Assembly: GCA_030295235.1 (NCBI GenBank) | Contig: AP026128.1 | Location: 806,001-870,000, forward strand | From: Fistulifera solaris | Taxonomy: Eukaryota; Bacillariophyta; Bacillariophyceae; Naviculales; Stauroneidaceae | Length of the DNA stretch: 64,000 nucleotides | Direction: 5' to 3' | Shown here: positions 4,179 through 21,744 of the stretch, piece after piece | Numbering within the stretch: the stretch's first letter is position 1 | Layout of the letters: each line of letters opens with the position of its first letter | Program-made: the position numbers and the translations under genes | Notes under the pieces: model-generated | What the model saw: only the letters and a program-made list of their open reading frames with translations | The model's database searches: none | What the model was told of the DNA's origin: nothing

Positions 4179-5561
4179 TCACCCGCTTCCTTTGCGTCGT
4201 GAAGCTTTCAATGCTTCTTCAAAGTTGTAAGGTAAGCATACTTGTTTCCACCCTGCTGGTCGTGGAACACACCCTTCGGCTCCGCGTTCTTGTACTTTCT
4301 TGCCGTGAACCTCCCACGCATCGTATCCGCTTTTCGGCATACGAAGATACTCATAGCGTTGTCGGATCTCTTCAAGCGCAAAGTCCGTGTCGCCATTACA
4401 ACACCAATCCGAATAAGAAGAATAGCAGCGCATATCGCTTGCCCCAGCATTTATCTCACAAAACGGATGCGATACAGCTTGATTCTCTCGCGCCATGACA
4501 AGGGATAGAGGCATGGATTGCGTAAAGCTACTGGGCCGAGCCGCAATTACAACATCCGCATGACTCAGAAGTATCATATCCATGAGGGTTGACTCCCAGC
4601 TACGCCAGCATTTAAACCCTGACCCCAGAACTTGTCCCCTTTCTCCAAACAAAACACCATCGCCTTTTGCGGGACGCACTTGATTCACATGCAAGATTGA
4701 AACACCATGGGGATCGAGAAGCGACTTTATTTCTTGTATGATGTCGGCTGTATCTGTCGAAACGAAAAGCTGAATAGATTTCTTTTGCCATTCTGACCGT
4801 GACAGTATCAGCTCCACCACTCGTCTCAACCAGCTCGATGGATCTTTTATTGCACGTCCTCGGTTCTGGAAGTCACCAGTCTCTCCATTTCCCGCTCGAA
4901 TATGGATACCGATAGTAGTGATAGTGGGATGAAAATGCTCTTTTCGATAGTCTTCTACTGCCTGACGACCACGAAACCGGTCTCGGTGTTGACGATAAAA
5001 ATGGACGTCAGAATCGATCTTATCCTGCACGCACGGACATTCGCTAGTCGAAGATGAGTTTCGTTGAAATTTGATCATACCATCGACTTCATTGTTCATC
5101 CGAACAAAGTGATTGCGGTGTTGCACGTGCGTCAGCTCCGATGGCGGCTGCGGCCCGAACAAATAATGATACACCTCCACTGCATCGCAATATCCCCAGA
5201 AACTCCGCAAAGCGAATCCCAACTTTGAAGCCGCATAATATGCGTCAGACAACTTTGATAAACGGTGCCCTAGTCCGCAACAAGCGTTGTAGTCGACAGA
5301 GGATAAGTTGTAAATGTCGCCAGGCAGGGATTGTTGCGTTGTTTCGCTTTTCGATGAATCTGTGATGAAGACTTCTTTCGACAGAATAGAAGTTTCTGAC
5401 GTTTTAGAAGAGTCTTCTTTCGGATTCATAGACTGATAGACATATGCTGTAAGGTTGAAGACGGTAAGGAAAAGAATCATCGCTTTGGCCACAAGGAGGA
5501 AACGCAATGACCGTTTTGGCGAACTGTTGCGGTGACTCAAAATAATGCTTCTTATCGCCAT
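4179..5561 (-). CDS. Golgi type II membrane glycosyltransferase, fucosyltransferase-like
   Basis: A 460-residue single-exon protein. A short basic N-terminus is followed by one hydrophobic anchor at about residues 20-42, then a lumenal catalytic domain: type II Golgi topology. Motifs are CCGLGHRLSKLSDAYYAA (~93-110), IGIHIRAGNGETGDF (~215-229), LFVSTDTADII (~262-272) and ARPSSFTQSMPLSLVM (~340-355). These resemble the donor-binding framework of the GT23/NodZ/POFUT-type fucosyltransferase fold, so a role in protein or lipid glycan fucosylation is likely. Donor and acceptor cannot be read from sequence. It is transcribed divergently from the gene at 5982, with 420 bp between the two starts. It could also be another GT-B transferase with the same loop. 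Confidence 0.6.
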   Translation of the reverse strand: MAIRSIILSHRNSSPKRSLRFLLVAKAMILFLTVFNLTAYVYQSMNPKEDSSKTSETSILSKEVFITDSSKSETTQQSLPGDIYNLSSVDYNACCGLGHRLSKLSDAYYAASKLGFALRSFWGYCDAVEVYHYLFGPQPPSELTHVQHRNHFVRMNNEVDGMIKFQRNSSSTSECPCVQDKIDSDVHFYRQHRDRFRGRQAVEDYRKEHFHPTITTIGIHIRAGNGETGDFQNRGRAIKDPSSWLRRVVELILSRSEWQKKSIQLFVSTDTADIIQEIKSLLDPHGVSILHVNQVRPAKGDGVLFGERGQVLGSGFKCWRSWESTLMDMILLSHADVVIAARPSSFTQSMPLSLVMARENQAVSHPFCEINAGASDMRCYSSYSDWCCNGDTDFALEEIRQRYEYLRMPKSGYDAWEVHGKKVQERGAEGCVPRPAGWKQVCLPYNFEEALKASRRKGSG

Positions 5562-5981
5562 TGCGCCTACGTAGACCTACAGGCGATCAGCGGCAACAGA
5601 CAACGGTTTAGTGGCGGATGTCAAATACGGGCTATCTTTTTTATTTCGTTCTTTGGGTGAATATAAGGGTAAATGGAGTTACTTTGCGTATTTAACAAGC
5701 ATCCCAGTCCGCGATGTGCGGCGGCAGCTTCAAATTTCAATAAGGCCACGCCAAATTTCTGGAACGGCACCTGGTACTCCAGTTTCACTCTATAATTTAC
5801 TGTATCTGCATGTGTGCTTTGCGACATTGAAGACGGATCAGAAAAAGACACACACACGCCTCGCACGCATTATTTTTTCCAGCTCATTGATCACAATTAC
5901 TCACAATGATGCTGACTCTTGCGATATGAATGCTTCATATGTTAATAAAACCACTTAGAGACAACAGACAAGACGAAGAAC
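5562..5981. promoter_or_regulatory. Divergent intergenic region
   Basis: 420 bp between two divergently transcribed genes, so it should contain both promoters. It is AT-rich with a CA/TC-rich patch around 5850-5870. No specific factor site is recognised. Confidence 0.4.
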
Positions 5982-7008
5982 ATGCACCGAAGCATCCTCG
6001 CCCGTTGTTGTGACGCTCTTATCGCCGAATCCGACTCTTTCGCAGAGTTTCAAGAACTGGTTACTGAGCAACACATGGAGAATAAACATTTTGGAAGAAA
6101 GCAGCAACACTGTCAAATCAAGCATCGAAGATGATGACCTCGATCGCTGGGGTGCAGCCGCGTGGAGTTCATTAGCGATTGATGTGTCTGGTGACGACGA
6201 AAGACCATCAACGCTGCTTCATCTTTTATCTCCTGCGAATGCATCAGCAACAACGAAGGGCTCGCTCTCCTTGCTTTCGATACAACATGCATCTTCTGTA
6301 GAAGAATCTCGTTCTCAACTAGCGGCTGTATTTTCTGAGAAAGGATCTCCTTTTTCGATTCGATTACGGCGACTCTTGAATAGACCCATCCTTCCGTCTC
6401 ACTTGTTAGATCAGACGCTATTTCAGTGGGACGAACAATACACGACTGGTGAAGTGACCCCTTCCCGGGAAATACATGTTTCTCCGTCTCCGAAGAAACC
6501 GCAACTCAAAGAAGTTGCCTTACCCGTCGACAATATCGCTTTACAACTACCATCGAGTGGAGTTACCGGTCTTTTACAATGCTCTCCGCAACTGGCAATT
6601 CGTCCCTTACCCCGCGCTATGCACGACCGTTTTCTGACTGTCCCTACTCTGGTATTTCATCAGTCAGCGGACATAAAACCCACAGCAGACTGGCATCCCA
6701 TTGGAGTTTCCAGTTCACGCAAAGGACAATATATGCAATACAAATATGGACTCGATGTGCGGTTGTGTCCCTCGACGATTCGTGAAAGCATGTTCTGTGA
6801 AGCTCAAGATTCCATGTTAGCCGGTTCGCTTCAAGAACTTCAATCTACGAAAGTTTTAGACAATAAGTCTACCGACGATGACCCGCGAATGAACAAGATG
6901 GATTGCTGGGTGGAAGTGAGGGCCAACTTGAAGAGACCATCGGGCTACTTTCAGCAGAACAAAACGACGCCGCGATTTGCAAAAGCCCCGGATATTCCTT
7001 ATGAATAA
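5982..7008 (+). CDS. Hypothetical protein, ~341 aa, no recognised domain
   Basis: I place the start at ATG 5982 (MHRSILARCCDALIAE...). The first ~32 codons and the long frame ending at 7008 differ by one base. Removing one A from AATAAAC near 6078-6084 would join HMEN to NILEESSNTVKSS without a stop, so a sequence error or a very short intron is likely. The N-terminus is slightly basic and could be a mitochondrial presequence, but this is weak. Visible landmarks are an acidic EDDDLDRW segment, a Pro/Ser-rich middle, and a conserved-looking core TVPTLVFHQSADIKPTADWH...YMQYKYGLDVRL (~215-265). The C-terminus is basic. I do not recognise the family. Confidence 0.55.
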
Positions 7009-7377
7009 TGATAGAAAACGTTATACAGTACATAGCTATGATAGCACTAAGGGGGTATCATCGCGGAAATAACCACTAGTACTTGGTTTATTACTTCTTA
7101 GTATGTCGAAAACGATACTGAAAATGAAACGATTGCTAGATCGGCAGCGAATGTCATCTATTTCATCCAAATTATCAACAACGTCAAACTAACCTAATGG
7201 CTAGAAAAATTTGCTTAGAGCATTTGCTAGACGCAAGGTTATTTTGCGAAATGCAAGTTTTAAAAATGATCTACATTTTACCGGGACTGAATCTCTATGA
7301 GTCACGACTCATGACAGGTCAACACTACAGTTCACATAAGGTTAGGACTAAGATGAACCAGTGGAAAGTTCGTGCCG

Positions 7378-7389
7378 AGCGCGTGCTTG
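7378..7389 (+). promoter_or_regulatory. Shared FRE-upstream element, copy 1 (AGCGCGTGCTTG)
   Basis: The 12-mer AGCGCGTGCTTG ends 136 bp before the first FRE ATG (7526). Identical copies precede the second and third FRE genes at 11400 and 15839. Function as a common, possibly iron-responsive, regulatory site is inferred from position and conservation only. Confidence 0.6.
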
Positions 7390-7525
7390 ATCGACCATGA
7401 TGACTGCGACTTCGAATCATTCTTCTGCGCCGCTTGCCGCTCTTCACGAAACGAGAAAGCCGTGATAGCCATGAGAAAAATCATGTGCTGATCTCATTAT
7501 TCTTGTTCTTGTTGCAAATAAAAGG

Positions 7526-10087
7526 ATGATGCAATGGGAATGGGACACGGCGAAAGGCCGATTGATTCCTTACTGGTTAACGGTGTTAAGCGGTTTCTTT
7601 ATCATTTCATTCTGGTGTGCCTTTTCGAATGATCCTTTCTACAAGCTCTTTTATAAAGCCATCTTTCATCCGGTATGTTGACTGCATCATCTTTCATCGA
7701 CATTAGAGCTTCATTCTGACTTCACAATCAATGATTCTGCAAATTTCTAGTTGACGAAGCACATGCATAATTATGAGGAAATGGATGAATGGTCCGACGT
7801 TTTTATTGGGATTATTGCACCAGTTGCTTTCGCAACCTGCGCGTGCTCTTTGTTGTTGACGACACACCGCTTACCGACATGGCGATGCAGCTGGGTACAA
7901 AGAATTGCGGCTGCACTTCGTCGTCATCCCTCGACCAGAGAAAACAATAATGACATTCCTTCGATACCAGCATCGATGACACAACAATTTAAAGCAAACT
8001 TCTGGTTCTTTGTATCGAGTCTCCGTCTCCCTTTCCGAAGCATGTCATCGGATGCTTTGTACGGATACGAGCTGGCGAGTAAAAAGGTCAATCAGTTTAG
8101 CCGTGGCGAACCCGATTTCAATATGCTTTCGTTTGCGTGCATCTTTCTTCCCATCATGATTGGCTTACTCGCGTACATGCCCGTCAGTATCGCGTTTGCC
8201 GATGAGAAGGCTGCCATGTTCGAGATGAGTGTCGCGAAACTGCGCCTCGAAGGAGTATCGTACCTCTATGGTTACGGCTCCATCGTGTGCCTTTCCCTGT
8301 TCCTGATCCCGGTCACGCGACATAGTGTGCTTCTGGCGGCCATGGGTTGGAGCCCCATCCACGCACTACGAATGCACATTTGGTTCGGATACATGTCCTT
8401 TATTTTCATGTTCATCCACGGTATCCTTCTTGTCCCCGTGTGGTTCATCTACGATCCGTATCCTGTTTATCAACAATTCATTCCCGACGCCAGATGCTGG
8501 ACCTTGACTTGGACCGAGAGCACGGAAAATGACATACAACCGTCATGTAGCCATGTTTACGCTAATTTGTCGGGACTTGTCGCCGCTATATTTTATTTCG
8601 TGCTCTGGGGGTCGAGTCTCAATTGGGTGCGCCGAAGAAACTATCGCCTCTTTTACAGCTTGCACGTTTCGTTCGGGACATTGGCCCTACTGGGTATTAC
8701 CTTGCATATGTATTGGTTTGTGATCTACTTCATTCCAAGCTTCACATACTATCTTGCCTCGACAACACCGACGTTGGTGCAAGCGATCGCCAGCCGCTTT
8801 CGCGGAGGAGTCAAGATCCGCAAGGTTGTGCTCGTCGAAGACAGCGGCGGCTGCGTTGAAGTTCAGATTAAGGCTCACCAAACGGCGCATGCTGTGCTAG
8901 ATCGCGAACCCTGTCAATACATCAAACTTTGCGTCCCGAAGATATCGCTCATCTGGCACCCGTTCGACGTCTTCAAGAGCTACTCCGCCGATGGCACGGC
9001 CGACGACACGGTCCGCTTTCTGTTTCGTCCCGTTGGTCCATTCACCAAGGAGCTCGCAAAACGCTTGACTTCCGACGTCGAGCGCCCCGTGACGCTGGTG
9101 GACGGATTTTATCTTGGTGCTGACAACAGTGAGCTCGCGTTGCAGCACGACTGTGTGACAATGGTTGCTGGCGGTGTTGCTCTTTCTCCGTATTTGACAC
9201 TGATTCCTGCACTGTTAAGCCGCATCGCCTTGGCGGAGAGTGTTGGTGATAACGTGAAAACCAAGTCCATCGTGCTCCACTGGGTAGTTCGTGAACCGGG
9301 ACTTTGTCGCCACTACGTTCAGAGCTATCTCAGCAATATATTGAAGCGTGCGAAAATTTTGAAATTAGAGTCCACACTTGCCATTTATGTCTACCTCACA
9401 GGAAGCGAAAAAGCTTTGGGCGATTCGTCTGAAATTGCCGCTGCAGTAGAGCCCAGCATATCTATAAGGAATCCTTCTTCAAATGAAGAGAAAGTCGTCA
9501 ATGGCATCAAAGAATCGCCGGGCCACCCTCTCGAGCTTCCTCGAATGCTTCCACGACGCTACGCAGAGTTTAGATGGAACATTCCTTACTTTGTTTTCTA
9601 TACAGCGGTAACTGTTGCTGGCGTTGTGTATTTATTTGACCGAACCCCACAAACTGTCATGAACTATTATGAGCTTTCTGAAATGACATGGATTGTCCTT
9701 TACGCTGTTTTTATGTTCGTCGGGTTCAGCTTCATTGCCGAGACATGTGTTCTTTGTTTGCGCAATTTCTGGCCGCAGCCAGTGCCGGACATGTTCGAAG
9801 TTGTTGCCACCGACGAAAAGATGAAGGAGCTGAGCGCTTCAGACGACGTGGATGTTACTGTTATAGAAAGCGGGAATCCTTCGGATGCCAACGTGATCAT
9901 TGCCTACCGCCAGGGACGCCCCACCAGCGATCAAATTTTTAAAGATGCTCGCGGTGCTGCCGAGCCTGGTATCTTTATGTGCGGTCCTAGCGCCTTAACT
10001 CAGATGGTCAAGGCGGAAGCGTCGAAAGAAAACTCTTATTTGGGACTTACCAGGTATTGCTTGTATGACGAGCCGTATGAGATGTGA
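7526..10087 (+). CDS. Ferric reductase / NADPH-oxidase-family transmembrane reductase, tandem copy 1
   Basis: Two exons: 7526-7672 and 7751-10087, with a 78-nt phase-0 intron GTATGT...CTAG; ~827 aa. Exon 1 encodes one membrane span (PYWLTVLSGFFIISFWCAF). Exon 2 carries the core with two His pairs 14 residues apart (about H258/H272 and H354/H368), which ligate two hemes across the membrane. An FAD site follows (HPFDVF, ~452, a variant of HPFT), then the NAD(P) glycine loop GGVALSPYLT (~523) and the terminal nucleotide motif MCGPSAL (~793). Two further spans lie between the two NAD(P) motifs, as in plant FRO reductases. Electrons would pass from cytosolic NAD(P)H through FAD and heme to external Fe(III). 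Oxidase activity (superoxide production) is an alternative. First of three tandem paralogues. Confidence 0.88.
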
Positions 10088-11399
10088 ACCCGCACTCCAA
10101 TTGCATCCTTCGGTAAAGCGGATTTTCAGGTCTTCATTAAGAAATGCCGGCGTAAGGTTACTTGCAGTAACCTGTGGTGTTGTTTATTGTACATAACATA
10201 AGACCAAAAGGATGTATTGCTAAAATGCTGAAAAAGATGCACTTTTGCTTCTTGCACTGTGAATGGTAGAGAACGATTCTTGTTGAGTAATCGCAGTTAA
10301 TCATGACACGACGATGCTTCCTGTTTATGATCTCCCTTTAAAAAGAATTGTGCGTGTCTATTCTGTGGTTGGTTGCCAATTTATTCAAATGAGCAGTCAA
10401 ACACTCAATAAAGCGTTGCCAAGAAAGTTAGATCCGGTTGGCTTACGATTAGTCTTCGGTCGGTTTTACACCAACAAGTTTGATGACAAACCGAATTGAT
10501 GACTAGCACGTAATAGCCAACGACATGGAGCTCCATTTCTTCTCATACAAAGAGCTCTCGACGGCAGTCTTATTCGTGAGTTGCGAGCCCTTAAGATAAC
10601 AAAGAAGGGTATCCAGCGATTCCGAAATCTCATTTCGGTCGGTGCTACAAACCTAGTACAAACTACCAAGCAGAGAGCAGGACCTTGGACCATTACTTGT
10701 ACTCATGCTTGGACCGTAAAGCCTGTAAATACATCGTCACGAATTTCTGACCTCACTGGACAGTTTGACAACAGAAAAAAATCGAATGTGAGTCATCCTA
10801 ACGCGCTAAACGCTACAGAGGCACAAATGCGAAGCATGAGAGCTTGGTCTCGGACTGTTTTCAGCTCGGAGTATTTACTAGAACTTTTCTTAACTTGAGA
10901 TTTAAAGGCTGATGGCGAAGCATGCTCAGCACAAGCCATCATCATTTTAAGACACCATGCAAAACACAGGCAATAAGGAGGGCTAACTGTGTACTTCATA
11001 CTCCGTGCTACATTTCGTTGAAACTCAGAAAAGTAAGACACAAAAACTAAAAGGTATCTTTCAGCTTTTAAAGTTTAAAGTTGACAAGTTGCCGTCCATC
11101 GTCCATCTTCACAACTATTTTTGATACACTATACCCTTCTACCAATGACTTGAAGTATGACAAAGATAAGAGATAAAACAAATAAGATCACTTGGACATG
11201 CTGAGTTCGCATTGCTTGCGCATTTACAACATAAAGCACAAAAACCGTTTGGCTCCAAGAATTCCATTGTCAAACTCTGAGCTCGAGACCTCGCGGCCCG
11301 CAAAGCCGTCGGTGGATTGCTCAGCAAAAGTCCTGCGATCCTGAAAATCACAGAAACAATTAACAACGGCCATCCATTTTCTCATTTGAAACCATGCCA
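10088..11399. other. Intergenic region between FRE copies 1 and 2
   Basis: 1.3 kb with only short, non-conserved reading frames. No RNA gene or repeat family was recognised. It contains the 3' flank of copy 1 and, at its right edge, the distal promoter of copy 2. Confidence 0.4.
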
Positions 11400-11411
11400 A
11401 GCGCGTGCTTG
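11400..11411 (+). promoter_or_regulatory. Shared FRE-upstream element, copy 2 (AGCGCGTGCTTG)
   Basis: Lies 124 bp before the second FRE ATG (11536). The extended block CCATGCCAAGCGCGTGCTTG matches the copy at 15831-15850 at 19 of 20 bases. A GATACC...TTGACACT block follows both copies. Confidence 0.65.
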
Positions 11412-11535
11412 CCAAGATGGATACCTTGACACTTCGATTGATGGATACCTATTTCACTGCGCCGAAATTTGATGAAAGATACCAGCCTCATAAAATTGAC
11501 GCTGCATCAAAATACTTGCTTTTGCGATTCGGATC

Positions 11536-14147
11536 ATGGTTGTCAAGTGGGATGTTGTGTGGGGCCGATTGGTCCCGTACTGGACGGCTGTTCTTAGTTC
11601 CTTGTTCATTCTCAGCTTCTGGTATGCGTGGACGAGTGAGTACGGTTACGATGCTTACGAAAAAGCGATCTTTAAGCCGGTACGTTCACCTGCAAAGGTT
11701 CGATCTTTGCATTCACCTCAATTTAACCACAACTTCTGCTGATCAATCAGTTAACACGAGGGATGGACTATGAAGTGGAGGACTGGTCCTCAATTCTAGT
11801 TGGTCTAGTCGCTCCTGCAGTTCTCACAAGCTGCATCTGCGCACTCCTTTTGACAAATCATCCGTTGCCAACATGGCGATGTGGCTGGTTCAACAAGATA
11901 GCGGCTGGACTTCGCCGTCATCCCTCGACCAAAGAAGGTGATGCAGCAATCGATGCATCCTTGGCGAGCCGTCTCATGTCCTCTTTTAAGTTCTTCTTGT
12001 CAAGTCTTCGCCTCCCCTTTCAAAAAGATGGTATCTGATGCCGAGTACGGCCATGACCTCGCAAGTAAAAAGATCAACCAATTCGGCCGCGGTGAGGCAA
12101 ACTTCAACGCCATGTCCATCTGGCTTGTCTTTCTACCCATGGTCATTAGCATAGTGGCAACTTTACCCGACACCATCGAACGAGCTGATGAGCGGGCCGC
12201 CGAGGACGGGTCGAGCGCTACAGCAAAGCGCCTTGAGAGGATTTCGTACCTCTTCGGTTGGGTATCCGCGCTGTGCCTCTCGTTGTTCCTCATACCGATC
12301 ACCAAACACAGTGTGCTTCTCGCTGCCATGGGGTGGAGCCCGATTCACGCTCTGCGAATCCACATCTGGTTCGGATACTTGGCTTTCGTCTACATGTTTA
12401 TCCATGGTATCCTTCTCATTCCAGTCTGGTTCATCTATGAGCCCTATCCGGTCTACAAGCAGATTATTCCCAATCCTGGGTGCTGGGACTGGACGTGGAC
12501 GAAAGAAAATCGCAACGACATTCTGCCACAGTGTCGTCATGTTCATGCCAACTTATCCGGTGTGGTCGCTGCTGTCTTCTTCGTTGTCCTGTGGGGATCA
12601 AGTCTCAATTGGGTCCGTCGCGCAAATTACCGTCTCTTCTACATTTCGCACATCACTTTCGGGACATTGGCCCTGTTGGGCACAATCTTGCATATGTACT
12701 GGTTCGTGATCTACTTCATTCCCAGCATCACATACTACCTTGCCTCAAATACGCCGACGTTAGTACAAGCCTTCGCCAGCCGCTTTCGAGGAGGTGTCAA
12801 GATCCGCAAGGTTGTGCTTGTTGAAAATAGCGGCGGCTGCGTTGAAGTCCAGATGGAGGCTCACCGAACGGCGCATGCTGTCTTGGACCGCGAGCCGTGC
12901 CAGTTCATCAAGCTTTGCGTCCCGACGATATCTCTTATCTGGCATCCATTCGACGTCTTCAAGAGCTATTCAGTCGACGGGATGCCCGACGATACGGTTC
13001 GCTTTCTATTCCGCCCCGTCGGTCCCTTTACTAAGGAGCTCGCAAGACGCTTAACTTCAGACGTCGTGCGACCCGTGACTCTCGTGGATGGATTCTACCT
13101 CGGTGCCGACAAGAGCGAATTGGCCATGCAGCACGACTGCGTGACTCTTGTTGCTGGTGGTGTTGCTCTTTCTCCGTATTTGACTCTCATCCCTGCTTTG
13201 CTGAACCGCATTGCGTCGGCGGAAATCAGCGGCGATAGCGTGAAAACCAAGTCCATTGTGCTCCACTGGGTGGTTCGTGAACCGGGACTCTGCCGCCATT
13301 ATGTCCAGAATTACATCAACAGTATTCTAAAGCGCGCGCGAGTTCTCAATCTTGATACAACGCTGGCCGTCTATGTTTACCTCACGGGGGCGACAAGAAT
13401 TTGGGCGATCCGTCTGAGATGACCGCCGCGGCAGAGTTGAGCAAGTCGACAGTTGAGACACCGTTTGCGGACCAATCGGCAAACCTGTCGCCTGACGACA
13501 CTGCTGATGCTGGAAGCGGAAGCTCTGATGAAGGCAAGAGTACCAGAGATTACACCGTGGTTGTTCAGAAGAATTCAACAGGTCACCCTCTCGAGCTGGC
13601 TCGCATGCTTCCCCGCCGCTACTCTGCGGCAGTTTGGAATATCCCATTCTTTGTCTTTTACTCGGGAGTCACGTTCTTCGGCTTTTGGTACTTGTTTAGT
13701 CAGACGCCCGATAAAGCCAGAAGCTACTACGAGCTCTCCAAAATGACTTGGATCGTTGTTGACGCCGTCCTCATGTACTTTGGATTTGGAATCTTGTCCG
13801 AAGCATTCGTTTTGGGTCTACGCAAGTACTGGCCTCAGCCGAAACTGGATGACTTTGAAATCGTGGCCGCAAACGGCAAGATGAAGGAGCTGAGCGATTC
13901 AGATAACGGTGATGTGATCAATGTCGAAGATGGAAATCTCCCGAGCGCGAACGTGACTATTGTCTACCGCCAGGGCCGCCCCGACGCCGATCAGGTCTTT
14001 GAAGACGCTCGCATGGCAGCCGAACCCGGTATCTTCATGTGCGGTCCCTCTGCATTGACTCACATGGTCAAGGCTGAAGCGTCGAAGGAGAACTCGTATT
14101 TGGGTCTCACCCGTTATTGCTTGTACGATGAGCCCTACGAGATGTGA
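11536..14147 (+). CDS. Ferric reductase family, tandem copy 2, with two single-base frame breaks
   Basis: Exon 1 is 11536-11679, intron 11680-11750 (71 nt, GTACGT...TCAG, phase 0) and exon 2 starts at 11751. The protein aligns throughout with copies 1 and 3: heme His pairs in IHALRIHIWFGYLAF and SHITFGTLALLGTILH, FAD motif HPFDVF, GGVALSPYLT, two late membrane spans and MCGPSALTHMV at the end. The frame breaks twice. One extra base lies in the A5 run 12022-12026 (after SSLRLPF). One missing base lies in the G5 run 13386-13390 (YVYLTG-GDKNLGDPSEM expected). The shifts are opposite in sign and both fall in homopolymers, while everything else is conserved. I therefore favour sequence error, though a recent pseudogene cannot be excluded. 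Role as for copy 1. Confidence 0.8.
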
Positions 14148-15838
14148 GTTGTTGCTCCGAGTACACAATCTCTCTGACGTCGCATCATGACTATTCAGCG
14201 ACATGCATGCTTGCATTCTAATAAAAGATCCATGTTTCATTTCCTCTGTTCGCTTTTATGCCAGTATGTATTCATTTTTTATCGTTCGTGTGAATGATGC
14301 GACCATTTGTCGTGTGCGCACATATTCTCTCGCCTTGGTTGATTGTCACCTAAATCATTTTGCCATAAAACTCGGTCATCATTTGAATTGACAGATAGTA
14401 CAATTGTATCGACGCACCCATCCAAGCAAAATGAAACGAGTACAGCCGATTACAAGCAAGACTTTTGCGCTATTGACAGGCCCTTGAACGAGCGTCTTCA
14501 AGCTCCAAATAATCACACGTATTTGAAAGTTCCTATCGACGAAGCTTATTGGGTTCGTCCCCACTATTGCCGCACCCTCCTTCCACCTATCACATCAAAT
14601 GATCAGCTTTACTTGTTCGTGTACTACTTGCTCACAAAAGATTCAAAGCATTGCTTGACGACTTGATAAACTCCATTGACGCGCGCAGTTGCAAGCAACA
14701 CGGCACGTTGCAGTGCAAAAAAACGGTACGAAACGACGTTAAAATTCTGCCTCGCCGTATCGCTACGTAGAAACTTGTACTGAGAGGCACAATTTTATTT
14801 TAACGTCCTTTCCGTAAAAAAATTTTACCGTAGACTACTGTACGTATCACGGTCGACGAGGAGAGGTGGGAAAACACTTATGTACCGTGTACCGGTAGGA
14901 CTATTACAAGCCTTTTGCACGCGTAACTACTAGTCTGCGGTACCGGTAAGGTTACCAAACGAACGACAAAAAAGACGCAACCAAAAATTGCGCACCTTAG
15001 AATTCATTACTCCGTAATATTGGACTCTTAGAGAGATCTCTAGCGACGATTGCGAGTTGTTTAGAGGCTCGTGAATCTTGATGAAGCTGCGGGAAGCGGA
15101 AGTGAGAGCCGAGCCTCGAACTTTGATCTTTGTTCATGGATCACAAACCCCAGAGACAGTGTGCCTCTAGAGAGAGCTATAGAGATAGTGGAGCATGCAC
15201 AGCACAAGCAGGCACAAGCGGCAAGCCGTCGTACGTCGTAGGTACTAGAGAGCTAGAGAGGTACAAAAGTAAGGACATGCTCACACAAGAGCACTCGAGA
15301 TTAGAAAATGGGGCTGGAGAGGTACACTAAGTATCCAAAAGTGAGACGTGAGACTTTGAGCCTGCTGCAGAAAGCCGAAAGCCGAAAATCAATCTCCTTG
15401 CTCCTTGTACTTCAGACTTCAGACTCCAGACCATAACACATACAGTAACACATTCACCATTCATTCAAACATCCTTACCTGATACCTGATACGGAGTAGA
15501 AGCGAAAGCGAACACTGAGACCATAATGTTCCAGTGGAAAGCTGATGAGGCGAAAAGAAATGTTGGTTTTAAGCCCTATAAACTATCATTTTTTCACCAA
15601 CCTCCAACCTCTCACTCGCCAGTTTTGTTATCTGTTAGTCTAGGGTACAACGGTACGGAGAATAGTGGCGAGCAGCGAATCACGAATCACGATGACTAGT
15701 ACTACAAGTAGCAACTAACAAGGACTCTTTAAAAGCTAAAAACAGAGGCATTTTGGTTTTTGTACACAAGAAACAAGAGCTGCCCGGAGTATTATTTCTT
15801 TGGTTTGGTGTCAACTGTCAACACGTGGTCCCATGCTA
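14148..15838. other. Intergenic region between FRE copies 2 and 3
   Basis: 1.7 kb without recognisable genes. It holds an imperfect inverted repeat (14735-14753 / 14784-14807, GACGTTAAAAT...TGCCTC arms), several GTACCGGTA repeats around 14880-14950, and short AGAGAG/TAGAGA-rich low-complexity sequence at 15030-15350. A CACGTG hexamer sits at about 15823-15828, just before the third FRE-upstream element. Confidence 0.4.
14735..14807. repeat. Imperfect inverted repeat (hairpin)
   Basis: Arms GACGTTAAAATTCTGCCTC (14735-14753) and GAGGCACAATTTTATTTTAACGTC in reverse orientation (14784-14807), with a ~30-nt loop. It could be a small MITE relic or a 3'-processing or insulator structure. Function unknown. 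Confidence 0.4.
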
Positions 15839-15850
15839 AGCGCGTGCTTG
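15839..15850 (+). promoter_or_regulatory. Shared FRE-upstream element, copy 3 (AGCGCGTGCTTG)
   Basis: Lies 160 bp before the third FRE ATG (16011), directly after CCATGCTA. The same 12-mer precedes the other two FRE genes. I did not see it elsewhere in the window when reading for it. Confidence 0.65.
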
Positions 15851-16010
15851 ATACCTTTGTTACTTGACACTCTTTATGAAACCAACAAAATGTGATGGAT
15901 GGAGATGATTTACCGGCTCGACCAGCCTGCTATCAAAGATACCTCATAAAATACATCAAACAAAAATTGATGGCTCAAAATTGAAATCTTGTTTTGTTGC
16001 TCGAATCATC

Positions 16011-18610
16011 ATGTTCGATTTGGACGTTGCCATGGGCCGATTGGTCCCGTACTGGATATCGGTCCTCACCACGCTCTTTATCATCAGTTTTTTGTACGCT
16101 TGGACGAACGATCCTGGTTATCTTGCTTTTGAAAAAGCTATCTTCAAACCGGTACGTAACCACTTCTCAATTGATACCAGCAATTCTCCTATATAGCTCT
16201 CACTGTTCGTGCTGATGAACTTGGCATTATCCATCAGTTAACCAAAGGAATGGATCACGAAGTTGAGGATTGGGCCTCTAATTTGATTGGATTCATAGCA
16301 CCACTTCTTCTTGCGAGCTGCCTTTGCGCGTTGTTTTTGACTAATCATCGATTGCCTACATGGAGATGCAGCTGGTTCAACAAGATCGCAGCGGCAATTC
16401 GCCGTCCTCCAACGAAGAAAGAAGGCGACAACATGACGAATGCAAATGTGCTGCAAAAACTCCAAGCCAGTTTTGGGTTCTTCGTGTCAAGCCTTCGTCT
16501 CCCCTTTATCAACATGACATCAGAGGCTGAGTACGGACATGATCTAGCAAGCAAGAAAGTCAACCAGTTCGGCCGGGGTGAGCCGAACTTTAATGCCATG
16601 TCTATCTGGCTCGCCTTTCTACCCATGGTCATTGGTGTAGTAGCTTACTTACCCGTCAGCTTCAAATGGGCGGATGAAGCAGCTGTTACGGAGGGAACAA
16701 GCAGGACAAGAGAGCGAATGATTTCAGCCTCGTATCTCTCTGGGTGGGGGTCGTTTATGTGCCTGGCCTTTTTTCTCATTCCGGTCACCCGTCATAGTGT
16801 GCTTCTGGCGGCAATGGGATGGAGCCCGATCCACGCTCTACGATTGCACATCTGGTTCGGGTACCTGTCGTATATCTTCATGTTCATCCACGGTATCATG
16901 CTCGTCCCTGTTTGGTACATGTACGAGCCGTATGCAGTGTACAAGCAAGTCATTCCGGATTCCAGGTGCTGGAGCTGGACTTGGACAGCAGAAACCGAGG
17001 CGGACATTGAACCGAGCTGCCGCCATGTCCACGCCAATCTATCTGGTGTCATCGCCGCAGTGTTCTTCACAGTACTCTGGGGATCGAGTCTTAACTGGGT
17101 CCGTCGAAAGAATTACCGTCTCTTCTACACTTTGCACATCATCTTCGGGATTCTGACCATTCTAGGCTCCATCTTGCACATGTACTGGTTTGTTCTTTAT
17201 CTGATCCCAAGCATCACGTACTACCTTGCCTCAACCACGCCAACAGTGGTACAGGCAGTTGCCAGTCGCTTTCGGGGTGGTGTCAAGATCCGCAAGGTTG
17301 TGCTCGTGGAAGACAGCGGCGGCTGCGTCGAAGTCCAGATGGAGGCTCACCGAACGGCGCATGCTGTTTTGGACCGCGAACCATGTCAGTTCATTAAGCT
17401 TTGTGTCCCCAAGATCTCACTCATCTGGCACCCTTTCGACGTCTTCAAGGGCTACTCAGTCGATGGCACAACCGACGATACGGTTCGCTTTCTGTTCCGA
17501 CCTGTTGGTCCGTTTACCAAAGAGCTCGCAAAGCGTTTGACTGGCGTCGAGCGTCCTGTGACGCTGGTGGATGGATTTTATCTTGGTGCCGACAAGAGCG
17601 AGCTTGCGCTGCAGCACGACTGCGTCACTATGGTTGCCGGTGGGGTTGCTCTTTCTCCGTATTTGACCCTCATCCCTGCCTTGTTGAACCGCATTGCCTT
17701 GGCAGAGAGAGTCGGTGATAACGTAAAAACCAAGTCCATCGTGCTCCACTGGGTCGTTCGTGAACCGGGACTCTGTCGTTATTACGTTGACAATTACGTC
17801 AACAGTATCTTGAAACGCGCTCGCGCTCTTAATCTTGACACAACGCTGGCTATTTATGTGTACCTCACAGGAGGCGAGAAAGCTGTTGTAGATTCATCTG
17901 AAAAAACTACTCCGGCAGCTTTGAGCAGTCTAACCATTGCGGATCCCTCACATGACGAGACCGCCGAGGCGGGCAGCGGTAGCTCTGAGCAAGATAAGTA
18001 TTCCAACGACGGTAAGGGCCATGATGACATTGCCACCGGCAATTCAACTGGTCACCCTCTCGAGTTGGCCCGAATGCTTCCCCGTCGTTATTCAGTTGCT
18101 GTGTGGAACTTTCCTTTCTTTCTCCTATTCACAGTGTCAGTGTTCGTCGGCTTTCAACTTTTATGGGATCAGAATCCGCACGATCCCATGAATTATTACG
18201 ACCTTTCCAAGATGACCTGGCTCGTGTTGTATCTCATCCCCCTTTACTTTGGATTCGGTATCTTGTCCGAGGCATGTGTTCTTGGTCTACGCAAGTACTG
18301 GCCTCAGCCGAAACTGGATGACTTTGAAATCGTCGCGGTGGGAGGCAAGATGAAAGAGCTGAGCGATTCTGACGACGGAGACATCAACGAAGACGGAAAT
18401 CTCCCGAGCGCGAAGGTGACCATGGTTTACCGCCAAGGCCGTCCCAACGCTGATCAGGTCTTTGAAGATGCTCGCATGGCAGCCGAACCCGGTATCTTCA
18501 TGTGCGGTCCCTCTGCTTTGACTCACATGGTTAAGGCGGAAGCCTCGAAGGAAAACTCTTATTTGGGCCTCACCCGTTACTGTTTGTACGATGAGCCGTA
18601 CGAGATGTAA
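16011..18610 (+). CDS. Ferric reductase / NADPH-oxidase-family transmembrane reductase, tandem copy 3
   Basis: Exon 1 is 16011-16151, intron 16152-16237 (86 nt, GTACGT...TCAG, phase 0) and exon 2 is 16238-18610; ~837 aa, frame intact. Order of parts is as in copy 1: first-exon membrane span (LVPYWISVLTTLFIISF), an N-terminal span, heme-binding core with His pairs in LRLHIWFGYLSYIFMFIHG and LHIIFGILTILGSILH, FAD motif HPFDVFKGYS, NAD(P) loop GGVALSPYLT, an acidic Ser-rich linker, two more spans, and MCGPSALTHMV. It is closest to copy 2: the last ~70 residues are nearly identical and the upstream 20-mer is shared. Copies 2 and 3 thus arose from the more recent duplication. It probably acts at the plasma membrane in reductive iron uptake. 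Confidence 0.88.
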
Positions 18611-19286
18611 TTGCATTTATTTGATTCAGTGGCGCTGGGGCGGAAAATCTCTCTTTACGGCAAAACGCAGTTCCAGAGCCAATACGTGTTACAAACTCTT
18701 TAACAAAATATACATGTGTCATTCATTTTCTTGTTCGCTGTTTTCCGATCATTAGCATAACGCGCTGGGACTTGTCTGCAGTTGATTGTTGCCTTGACAT
18801 CGTCTTTGTAGCAATGTTTTCGGATCTTTGCTGCTTCCATGACTTTCAGCTTCCGCTTCGATCATTCTTTCTACTAGTCACTGTGATACAGCCGTCATTA
18901 GAGCAGCGCATTGCAGCTATTGTAATATCGAGCGAACGAATGAAGGGCAATGAGAGAACACGCATGCTCCCTTTGTGTTTGTTGTGATGATGATGAGCAA
19001 GAGAAAAATAATGAAGAGGTGCGCTGCGAATAACCTTACTGTAAAAGCGAAAGGATGAAATGATCCGTGATCCTTTCCCGTTGGCGAATGCGTACACTTT
19101 TATCCATATAAAGAGTTGTTTATTTGCGAATCATTACTTAGGCTATATTTTCCGTTCATACGACTATAACGGTTACAAACGTTAATAATTATATCCGCTC
19201 GCATAGCTCGTCGCCTTTCGCTGCAAACAAAATGCCGCACTGCATTGATTTATTTGCTGTCAAGCATTTTTAAATGCAAACTCAAA
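18611..19286. other. Intergenic region, nothing recognised
   Basis: 676 bp between FRE copy 3 and HID1. AT-rich, no conserved reading frame or RNA gene seen. It should contain the HID1 promoter. Confidence 0.4.
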
Positions 19287-21744
19287 ATGGGACAATCTGC
19301 AAGCAAGGAGAAATTTGGAGAGTCCGTACAAGCGTTAATCAAGGTTGATATATCGGCCGACGATGCGGATTTTTGGGACGAATTGTGGAAAATTCCCAGT
19401 TCGGCAGAAGAAGTGTTTGAGTTAATTCCTCCTTCTGCGGCTAGAAAATTACGCGATGATCGCTTTGAGAACTTGGCGACCTTATTTACTCAAGCAGTAG
19501 CGCAGCTGTGTCAGATCGTTGAAACGCCGTATAGTATTTACTTTGACCAAGCACTCAACTGCGTACGAGTTTTGACCCGGGTTCTGCCGTTTCTTCTCGA
19601 AAAAGGTGCGTATCGACGACAAAGGAAGACAGCAGAACACCACGCGCTGACGCTCTAAGCTTAACTCAGGTGATCTAGGGGACGCCGACGAGAACGTTGA
19701 GCAATTGTGTTGGGGAACGGGTTCCGCTGGTTTGGGAAATGACGAAAAAATTGGTTTGATGATTGGGGGAGGCGCGGAAAAGAAAGAGGAAGGGGAACTG
19801 CCAATGTCGGCAAAATTGCCAACAAGAATGTTGACGAAGATCAACAAGAACCGCTGGCGTTATTGGTGGTGCACGCTTGCATGCACATGTTATTTTTACC
19901 GCAATTTACTTGTGATTTCTACGAAGATTCGACCCTCCCGAAACATCGACCCGCAATTGATAAGACTATCGTCACAAAGGAAGATAAAGAACTCCGAGCG
20001 GAAGCGGGTCTTCGTGAAAAGAAAGTGGAATGGGGCGTCCCTCTTGATCCCACTCCGACGAGTATCATTTGGGCGCCTGGAGTTGGCGTGACGGCCACGG
20101 AGTTGGGCTTTGACGCAGGAACGCGCAAATACGACGCCAATCGGGTGGAAGTTTTGCGATTATTACTAGCATGCTCATGTGATCCTCTTTATAGCCCAGC
20201 TGATGAATACAATCCGCTCGCGAGCCGATGGTTAGGAGTGGCCACTGCCGCGGATGCACCGAATGCGATCTGCTTATTTTATAGCTTACTCAACACAATT
20301 CTCAACTACGACCCCCGAGCAATGCCGGTCACAGCGGGCTTTTCGGAAGGCAATCACGTCAAGCTCGTAGAATTATCAACACAAGTCCTTTGCGTTCTTC
20401 TCGATTGTGGATTGCCCGGGACGGCCGAACCGGTCAGCGACCAGAACGGTAAAGAAGTCGTTGAATTTGATGTTGCAAGCAAAGGCGGTTTCAACATCTT
20501 CCGAACACTTATGGCCCGCATTGATACTGGCAGGGAGCTGACGTTTATTTACAATGGCTTTGCTCGCTTACTTCGCAACGTATACGAGGCAGAAGCTACC
20601 TACATTAGCAGCCGAAGACTAGAATGTTTTCAAGAGCTTCTCGTTTTGTTTTGGAAATTCTCCGAGGAAAACCCGCTGTTTGTCAAGCATGCTCTTTTAC
20701 GCTGTAACATCAACGACATTCTTGTTCCGATTTGCTTTCTGATGTACCGAAGTCGTCGAGATCCTTCGCAGATCGGTCTTGTTCACATTTGCACCTTCAT
20801 TCTTCTCAAGTTCTCGGGCGAAAGGTCTTTCGGCGTGGCACTAAACAAACAATTCACGAAGAAGCTACCAACCGACCTTCCTCTCTTCCGTGGGTGTCAT
20901 ACTGACTTGTTGGTCATCACTCTCCACAAGCTGGTCGTCAACGGAGCGTACAAACTGGTACCTTTGTATTCATGCTTTTTGACTATCATCGCAAATGTCT
21001 CGCCCTATTGGAAGAGCATGAGTCTTGTGGCGGCTGTGAAACTCGTCAATCTTTTGAGCTTTTCTCGTCTCCTAAGTTTTTGTACTCAGGCGAATTTGCT
21101 TATCGTCACCTGGCTCTACTTTTGGAGGTGTTCAACAACATTATTCAGTACCAATATCACGGTAACGCTCATCTTGTATACGCGATAGTGAGACGAAAGG
21201 ATGCTTTTGGGCAACTCGCTTCTTTGACTCTTGAGCGTGCCCAGGCAGCTTGTCATAAAGTTTATGGCGAACAAACTTCTCAGCAGAAAAATGTGGATGC
21301 TGCGATGAAGTCTATGGACGCCAAAGCAATACCAATGTCGAACAACAATGCACATGATGATGCATCGCAGAACTCCGAGGTGGTGGGAACCCCCTTTTAT
21401 CCCACGCAAGAATGGCTCGAAGAGCTCAAGGACAGTCTTCCTATGGAAGCTGTGACGCGCCTGTTGCAACACCTTGTACCGGTGGTTGATGATATCGTCA
21501 ATAAGAAAAGCGGAGTCGTCGACGAGCAAGAAATTTTGGATGTCCTTAATGAAATCACAATGGTTGGTTTATTGCCCGTGCCCCACTCCATTGTGATCCG
21601 AAAATACCAGCCAAATCAATACACCGCGCTTTGGTTTACTGCCTTCATGTGGGGCGTCATCTTTTGCGAAACCAATCACTTCCTTTATTCGACGGAGAGT
21701 GCATCGAATTGTTTCAGGTGTCACTCGATGACCATGACGAGTAA
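19287..21744 (+). CDS. HID1: HID1 / Dymeclin-family trans-Golgi trafficking protein
   Basis: Starts MGQSASKEKFGES, an N-myristoylation signal also found in animal HID1. FWDELW follows (~residue 30), then the family pattern through TRVLPFLLE (~100). Intron 19606-19669 (64 nt, GTGCGT...TCAG) joins K to GDLGDADENV. Later family landmarks are VEVLRLLLACS, FLTIIANVSPYWKS, LLLEVFNNIIQYQYHGN and LLPVPHSIVIRKYQ. HID1 acts at the trans-Golgi in vesicle and dense-core granule biogenesis. The frame breaks three times, each explained by one base missing from a run: A4 at 19812-19815, T4 at 21052-21055 and T4 at 21662-21665. After the last, the end reads WGVIFLRNQSLPLFDGEC...DDHDE, matching the family C-terminus. 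Sequence error is far more likely than decay. Confidence 0.87.

What the first reader, a model, noticed from the sequence alone, without database searches (positions are those of the whole stretch)
7378..16151. Identical 12-mer AGCGCGTGCTTG upstream of all three tandem ferric-reductase genes
The exact 12-mer sits 124-160 bp before each inferred ATG (7378, 11400, 15839), while most of the surrounding intergenic DNA is not alignable between copy 1 and the others. Copies 2 and 3 share a 20-bp block (19/20) plus a downstream GATACC/TTGACACT block. Selective retention in an otherwise diverged promoter suggests a binding site, plausibly for an iron-status regulator controlling the cluster.
Basis: partly seen in the sequence, partly recalled or inferred. 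Interest (0 to 1): 0.75.

Follow-up and report, generated by a model that had tools for sequence, protein, structure and literature searches.

The report
Shared promoter element of reductase genes
Three neighbouring copies of a ferric-reductase-type gene each keep the same short DNA word about 140 bases before their start, although most of the DNA around it can no longer be matched up, so it is probably a control site; that it responds to iron is not shown.

Summary
AGCGCGTGCTTG occurs exactly three times in 64 kb, on the + strand, 136, 124 and 160 bases before the inferred starts of three tandem ferric-reductase-superfamily genes. The retained block is 18 bp, RTGCYRAGCGCGTGCTTG, its three variable positions all transitions. 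Apart from its own sub-words, no 7-mer is shared by the three 400-bp upstream regions; 0 of 7,000 null triples reached 12 bases, the longest being 10. Four-fold sites agree in all three copies at 83 of 248, so chance survival since duplication is unlikely (0.0008 blocks expected; 0.03 at the rate of the most conserved coding stretch). A DNA-level transcription-factor site is the best reading; RNA structure and an upstream peptide are poorly supported.

Iron control is unproven. The published diatom iron motif ACACGTGC is absent from the window; the site comes within two mismatches of it, as do 3.2% of window 12-mers. The genome is not held and no relatives were found, so genome-wide enrichment and orthologous promoters stay untested. 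Copy 2 carries two single-base frameshifts beside homopolymer runs.

The parts
7372..7389 (+). Element copy 1: GTGCCGAGCGCGTGCTTG (12-mer at 7378-7389)
11394..11411 (+). Element copy 2: ATGCCAAGCGCGTGCTTG (12-mer at 11400-11411)
15833..15850 (+). Element copy 3: ATGCTAAGCGCGTGCTTG (12-mer at 15839-15850)
7526..10087 (+). Gene copy F1: ferric-reductase-superfamily protein, intron inferred at 7673-7750
   Evidence: gene model; Pfam PF01794 and PF08030 on the exon-2 ORF
11536..14147 (+). Gene copy F2: homologue, intron inferred at 11680-11750; relative to F1 and F3 one extra base near 12021 and one missing base near 13386
   Evidence: not scanned against Pfam
16011..18610 (+). Gene copy F3: ferric-reductase-superfamily protein, intron inferred at 16152-16237
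   Evidence: gene model; Pfam PF01794 and PF08030 on the exon-2 ORF
11426..11433 (+). TTGACACT, also in copy 3; not found between element and start of copy 1
15864..15871 (+). TTGACACT, also in copy 2; not found between element and start of copy 1
11475..11496 (+). AAAGATACC then CTCATAAAAT, also in copy 3; not found between element and start of copy 1
15935..15952 (+). AAAGATACC then CTCATAAAAT (overlapping by one base), also in copy 2; not found between element and start of copy 1

Best explanation
The 18-bp block is a cis-regulatory DNA element of the proximal promoter, kept by purifying selection in front of all three tandem paralogues since their duplications. A sequence-specific transcription factor probably binds it and co-regulates the three reductase genes. 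Its nearly palindromic core AAGCGCGTGCTT with CGTG suggests a dimeric factor, perhaps of the bHLH or bHLH-PAS type (factor class from recalled knowledge, not from a call). Shown: presence, uniqueness in the window, retention beyond the chance models used. Inferred: that it acts as DNA, that a protein binds it, which factor class. The signal is plausibly iron status; that step alone I put at about 0.4.
For: Three exact copies, all in like position and orientation relative to homologous genes, none elsewhere in the window. No triple of 2000 simulated or 5000 real segments reached 12 shared bases, and no 7-mer outside the block's own sub-words is shared by the 400-bp upstream regions. Neutral calibration: four-fold sites identical in all three copies are 83 of 248 overall (fraction 0.205 of 88 in the 5' part, 0.455 of 99 in the middle, 0.328 of 61 at the end); expected invariant 12-blocks per 400 aligned columns 0.0008 at the overall rate and 0.03 at the highest. 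The introns of the same genes show no clear similarity: 23, 293 and 71 of 300 shuffles score at least as well. The three variable positions of the 18-mer are all transitions. The core is 10 of 12 self-complementary in copies 2 and 3. Between the element and each inferred start lie 4, 3 and 6 ATGs, which suggests that transcription starts downstream of the element (inference).
Against: Three copies in one window are one gene family, not a regulon. No expression, footprint or orthologue data. Pairwise local matches with copy 1 are only modestly above shuffles (5 and 3 of 500). Runs of 12 or more invariant columns are not rare in the coding alignment itself: 10 in 2569 columns, 9 of them in columns 1207-1700, though there the protein is constrained. 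By identity alone the F1-F2 introns look somewhat alike (6 of 300 shuffles as high). The palindrome is imperfect in all three copies, with 8 of 12 self-complementary positions in copy 1. The relaxed search with up to 3 mismatches gives 60 hits against 54.6 expected, so no wider set of sites shows in the window. The 18-mers hold no CANNTG.
Confidence: 0.7

Rival explanations
1. The block is a diverged form of the published diatom iron motif ACACGTGC, bound by the same factor, and makes the cluster iron-starvation inducible.
For: The 8 bases GCGCGTGC differ from ACACGTGC by two A-to-G transitions and share CGTGC (read from the sequence; best distance 2). Lommer et al. 2012 place their motif around -200 from the start and screened 150-250 bases (passages); here the 12-mer starts 148, 136 and 172 before the ATG. 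FRE genes of other diatoms are iron-responsive (passages). A bHLH gene (bHLH3) was among the most iron-affected genes in T. pseudonana (passage).
Against: The exact motif is absent from the window: 0 found, 1.99 expected. Of the window's 12-mers 3.2% come within two mismatches of it, and 6.1% of shuffles of this 12-mer do, so the likeness is weak. The retained part extends to TTG, beyond the known motif. The known motif's own tie to iron is loose: of 45 gene models carrying it, most were hypothetical and without significant regulation (passage).
Confidence: 0.25
2. A promoter element that coordinates the three genes, but for a signal other than iron (light phase, another nutrient, redox), or a general activator site.
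For: All sequence evidence for retention applies equally. In P. tricornutum FRE genes are also expressed strongly in the dark phase (passage), and bHLH-PAS factors are tied to day-night timing in diatoms (passages).
Against: A general core-promoter element should recur before other genes; the exact 12-mer does not, in 64 kb, and near matches are at background level.
Confidence: 0.3
3. Passive retention: the block survived by chance or was copied between paralogues by a short gene-conversion tract.
For: The middle of the coding region has excess four-fold identity (0.455 of 99 against 0.205 of 88 sites, Fisher p 0.00035), as conversion between copies could leave. At that higher rate the expected number of surviving 12-blocks is 0.03 per 400 columns, not negligible.
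Against: The flanks of the block are dissimilar on both sides when all three are compared, so a tract would have to be about 18 bp; at the overall rate only 0.0008 blocks are expected.
Confidence: 0.12
4. The block acts in the transcript, as an RNA hairpin (5-bp stem, GCGU loop) or as a short upstream reading frame (M-P/L-SACL).
For: By eye, CAAGC-GCGU-GCUUG can pair in copy 2, and the changes in copies 1 and 3 would leave G-U pairs; copy 2 folds so in both stretches tried. Copies 2 and 3 have an ATG at the first base of the 18-mer (11394, 15833).
Against: Folding of 36- and 100-base stretches gives z-scores from -1.10 to 1.11, and the hairpin is in the best structure only of copy 2. No Rfam match in 5000-20000. 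Copy 1 has GTG in place of the ATG; the frames from 11394 and 15833 are 11 and 20 codons and differ after SACL; no third position of AGC GCG TGC TTG varies.
Confidence: 0.08

Closest known systems
ACACGTGC iron motif of diatom promoters (Lommer et al. 2012, PMC3491386; passages read)
   Same: Short, nearly palindromic, with CGTG, upstream of genes of iron metabolism in diatoms, at a roughly similar distance from the start codon
   Different: Two of eight bases differ; conservation here extends to 18 bp; the exact motif is absent from the window; iron response untested
Two iron-responsive elements of P. tricornutum promoters (Yoshinaga et al. 2014; known only through citing passages)
   Same: Cis-elements in diatom iron-starvation promoters
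bHLH E-box and G-box sites (CANNTG, CACGTG; oomycete study PMC11267843, passages)
   Same: Nearly palindromic core with CGTG; bHLH factors exist in diatoms (passages)
   Different: The 18-mer holds no CANNTG; no binding data

Membership tests
Diatom ACACGTGC iron motif | Exact 8-mer ACACGTGC | tested here: not met
   0 matches in the window; nearest 8 bases have 2 mismatches
[quoted passage not shown]
   First base at 148, 136 and 172 before the ATG: one of three inside the range; starts are inferred
Diatom ACACGTGC iron motif | Palindromic | tested here: inconclusive
   10 of 12 self-complementary in copies 2 and 3, 8 of 12 in copy 1
Diatom ACACGTGC iron motif | In front of iron-regulated genes | not testable with these tools
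   No expression data for these genes; organism unnamed, genome not held
bHLH E-box | CANNTG core | tested here: not met
   None in any of the three 18-mers. The G-box CACGTG occurs 4 times in the window, one of them at 15822 before copy 3
Ferric reductase / NADPH oxidase superfamily (the three genes) | Ferric_reduct transmembrane domain and NAD-binding domain | tested here: met
   PF01794 and PF08030 above cut-off in the exon-2 ORFs of F1 and F3; F2 was not scanned, being homologous but frameshifted
Ferric reductase (as opposed to NADPH oxidase) | Reduces ferric iron rather than oxygen | not testable with these tools
   The one solved-structure match of F3 at E up to 0.01 is a NOX2 (cytochrome b-245 heavy chain) domain, whole-sequence E 0.00021, its two stretches weak on their own (0.19 and 5.5)

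The most novel reading that the evidence does not exclude
RTGCYRAGCGCGTGCTTG is a diatom regulatory element not described in the papers I could search (the core and its reverse complement with 'diatom', main texts of open-licence papers only), distinct from ACACGTGC, that defines its own regulon including this reductase cluster and is bound by a factor with a long asymmetric site.
Probability: 0.3. Interest if true: 0.6.

Novelty: new member of a known kind. Interest (0 to 1): 0.4.

Why it matters
Few iron-responsive cis-elements of diatoms appeared in the papers I found, and no factor that binds them was named in the passages read. A short, sharply bounded element kept in three paralogous promoters is an easy target for reporter tests and for fishing out its factor. 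If it does respond to iron it would give a handle on how marine diatoms switch on reductive iron uptake.

Tried and rejected
Searching the window's own genome for the 12-mer: not held. Relatives of the protein: viral contigs (1 stretch matched a pattern; 71) and prokaryote genome contigs (251; 7), none of them a relative by tblastn. This is expected for a nuclear gene of an alga and says nothing about other algae. Wider occurrences with up to 3 mismatches: background level. Rfam: nothing in 5000-20000. RNA hairpin: not supported. Bacterial promoter scan of 7200-7560: nothing, and not apt for this organism. NCBIfam: no family for F1 or F3. Pfam was run on 28 of the 44 ORFs of 150 aa or more.

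Literature, all in one library of open-licence papers. GCGCGTGC with diatom gave 1 paper, unrelated by its title. Its reverse complement gave 5: I opened only PMC2758714, where it lies in a qPCR primer (passages), and judged the other 4 by title. ACACGTGC with diatom gave only Lommer et al.. A search for tandem ferric reductases with a regulatory element gave none at 5 of 6 terms. Other listings. All papers cited were seen as passages from a term search inside them, none in full.

P. tricornutum itself seems less likely because only FRE1, 2 and 5 are described as NADPH-oxidase-type there and FRE2 lies beside FBP1 (passages); this is inference.

Mended after the filing check: the distance of CACGTG from the element in copy 3, the wording of 'only' claims, the intron control (added), the coding-run result and Lommer's own caveat (added).

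Full report
What was checked. The exact 12-mer AGCGCGTGCTTG is at 7378, 11400 and 15839 on the + strand and nowhere else in the 64 kb; shuffled windows gave 0.02 on average and none of 100 gave three. Gene models built on matching splice sites put the start codons at 7526, 11536 and 16011, so the 12-mer ends 136, 124 and 160 bases before them. The exon-2 ORFs of copies 1 and 3 match Pfam Ferric_reduct and NAD_binding_6. Copy 2 is their homologue, at 0.737 (with copy 1) and 0.778 (with copy 3) nucleotide identity in the coding region.

Is it more than chance? The three 600-bp upstream regions are globally no more alike than shuffled ones. The longest word common to all three is this 12-mer for each of six upstream lengths from 200 to 1000 bp. 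With 400-bp regions the longest null word was 10, in 2000 Markov triples and in 5000 triples of real window segments. Apart from sub-words of the 12-mer, no 7-mer is shared by the 400-bp regions. Each pair alone is less striking for copy 1: 5, 3 and 0 of 500 shuffles reach the F1-F2, F1-F3 and F2-F3 local scores. The block is in fact 18 bp, RTGCYRAGCGCGTGCTTG, with 15 invariant positions and three transitions; it has three matches in the window, the same three places.

Is it more than common descent? Tandem duplicates presumably start with like promoters, so the fair yardstick is neutral divergence. At four-fold degenerate sites whose first two codon bases agree in all three copies, the third base agrees in all three at 83 of 248; the fraction is 0.205 of 88 in alignment columns 0-1125, 0.455 of 99 in 1125-1725 and 0.328 of 61 after. 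At these rates about 0.0008 invariant 12-base blocks are expected in 400 aligned columns overall, and 0.03 with the most conserved stretch. This assumes independent sites and no indels. The introns agree: their global alignment scores are reached by 23, 293 and 71 of 300 shuffles for F1-F2, F1-F3 and F2-F3, although by identity alone F1-F2 stands out somewhat (6 of 300). The 3' flanks of 400 bp show no match of copy 1 with the others (263 of 300 shuffles as good in both comparisons) but a real one between copies 2 and 3 (0 of 300), which fits copies 2 and 3 being the closer pair. Against this, the coding alignment itself (2569 columns) holds 10 runs of 12 or more invariant columns, 9 of them in columns 1207-1700, where the protein is constrained. 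Chance survival is unlikely and selection the better reading.

DNA or RNA? The core AAGCGCGTGCTT is 10 of 12 self-complementary in copies 2 and 3 and 8 of 12 in copy 1. The same symmetry would allow a small hairpin in a transcript, but folding gives ordinary energies and the hairpin only in copy 2. An upstream ATG coincides with the block in copies 2 and 3 but is GTG in copy 1, and 4, 3 and 6 further ATGs lie between the block and the three starts. I therefore favour a DNA-binding site upstream of the transcription start; the start itself is not known.

Iron? Lommer et al. 2012 described the palindromic motif ACACGTGC around -200 in iron-regulated diatom genes, and noted that most of the 45 gene models with it were hypothetical and without significant regulation (passages). 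It is absent here. GCGCGTGC within the 12-mer differs by two transitions, but 3.2% of all window 12-mers come as close. Yoshinaga et al. 2014 reported two iron-responsive elements (cited in a passage), whose letters I could not see. FRE genes of P. tricornutum, T. pseudonana and T. oceanica respond to iron (passages), and in P. tricornutum they are also expressed strongly in the dark phase. The enzymes here belong to a superfamily that includes NADPH oxidases. Iron control is plausible, not shown.

Limits. The source genome is not held, and no relative was found in viral contigs or prokaryote genomes. The two tests that would decide, genome-wide enrichment and orthologous promoters, remain undone.

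Noticed in passing
12021 and 13386 (approximate): Copy 2 has one extra base beside an A run and one missing base beside a G run relative to copies 1 and 3; the stretch between is fully open in one shifted frame (0 stops). Either sequencing error at homopolymers or a very young pseudogene.
   Followed up: partly
8728-9328, 12714-13314, 17200-17797: The middle of the three coding regions has excess four-fold-site identity (0.455 of 99 against 0.205 of 88 in the 5' part, p 0.00035), suggestive of gene conversion or synonymous constraint.
   Followed up: partly
16250-18610: The NAD-binding domain match (positions 2-154 of 156) is spread over residues 457-764, and the weak NOX2 match falls in two pieces (449-545 and 729-765): a long insert, by eye with two hydrophobic stretches, splits the domain.
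   Followed up: no
15822-15827: A CACGTG (preceded by A, followed by G) ends 5 bases before the 18-mer in copy 3; the other three in the window are not near copies 1 or 2 of the element.
   Followed up: no
7839-7847: GCGCGTGCT, nine bases of the 12-mer, also occurs inside the copy 1 coding region.
   Followed up: no
11417 onward: In copy 2 an ATG 119 bases before the inferred start opens a different frame with no stop within the 300 bases read; whether it is used is unknown.
   Followed up: no
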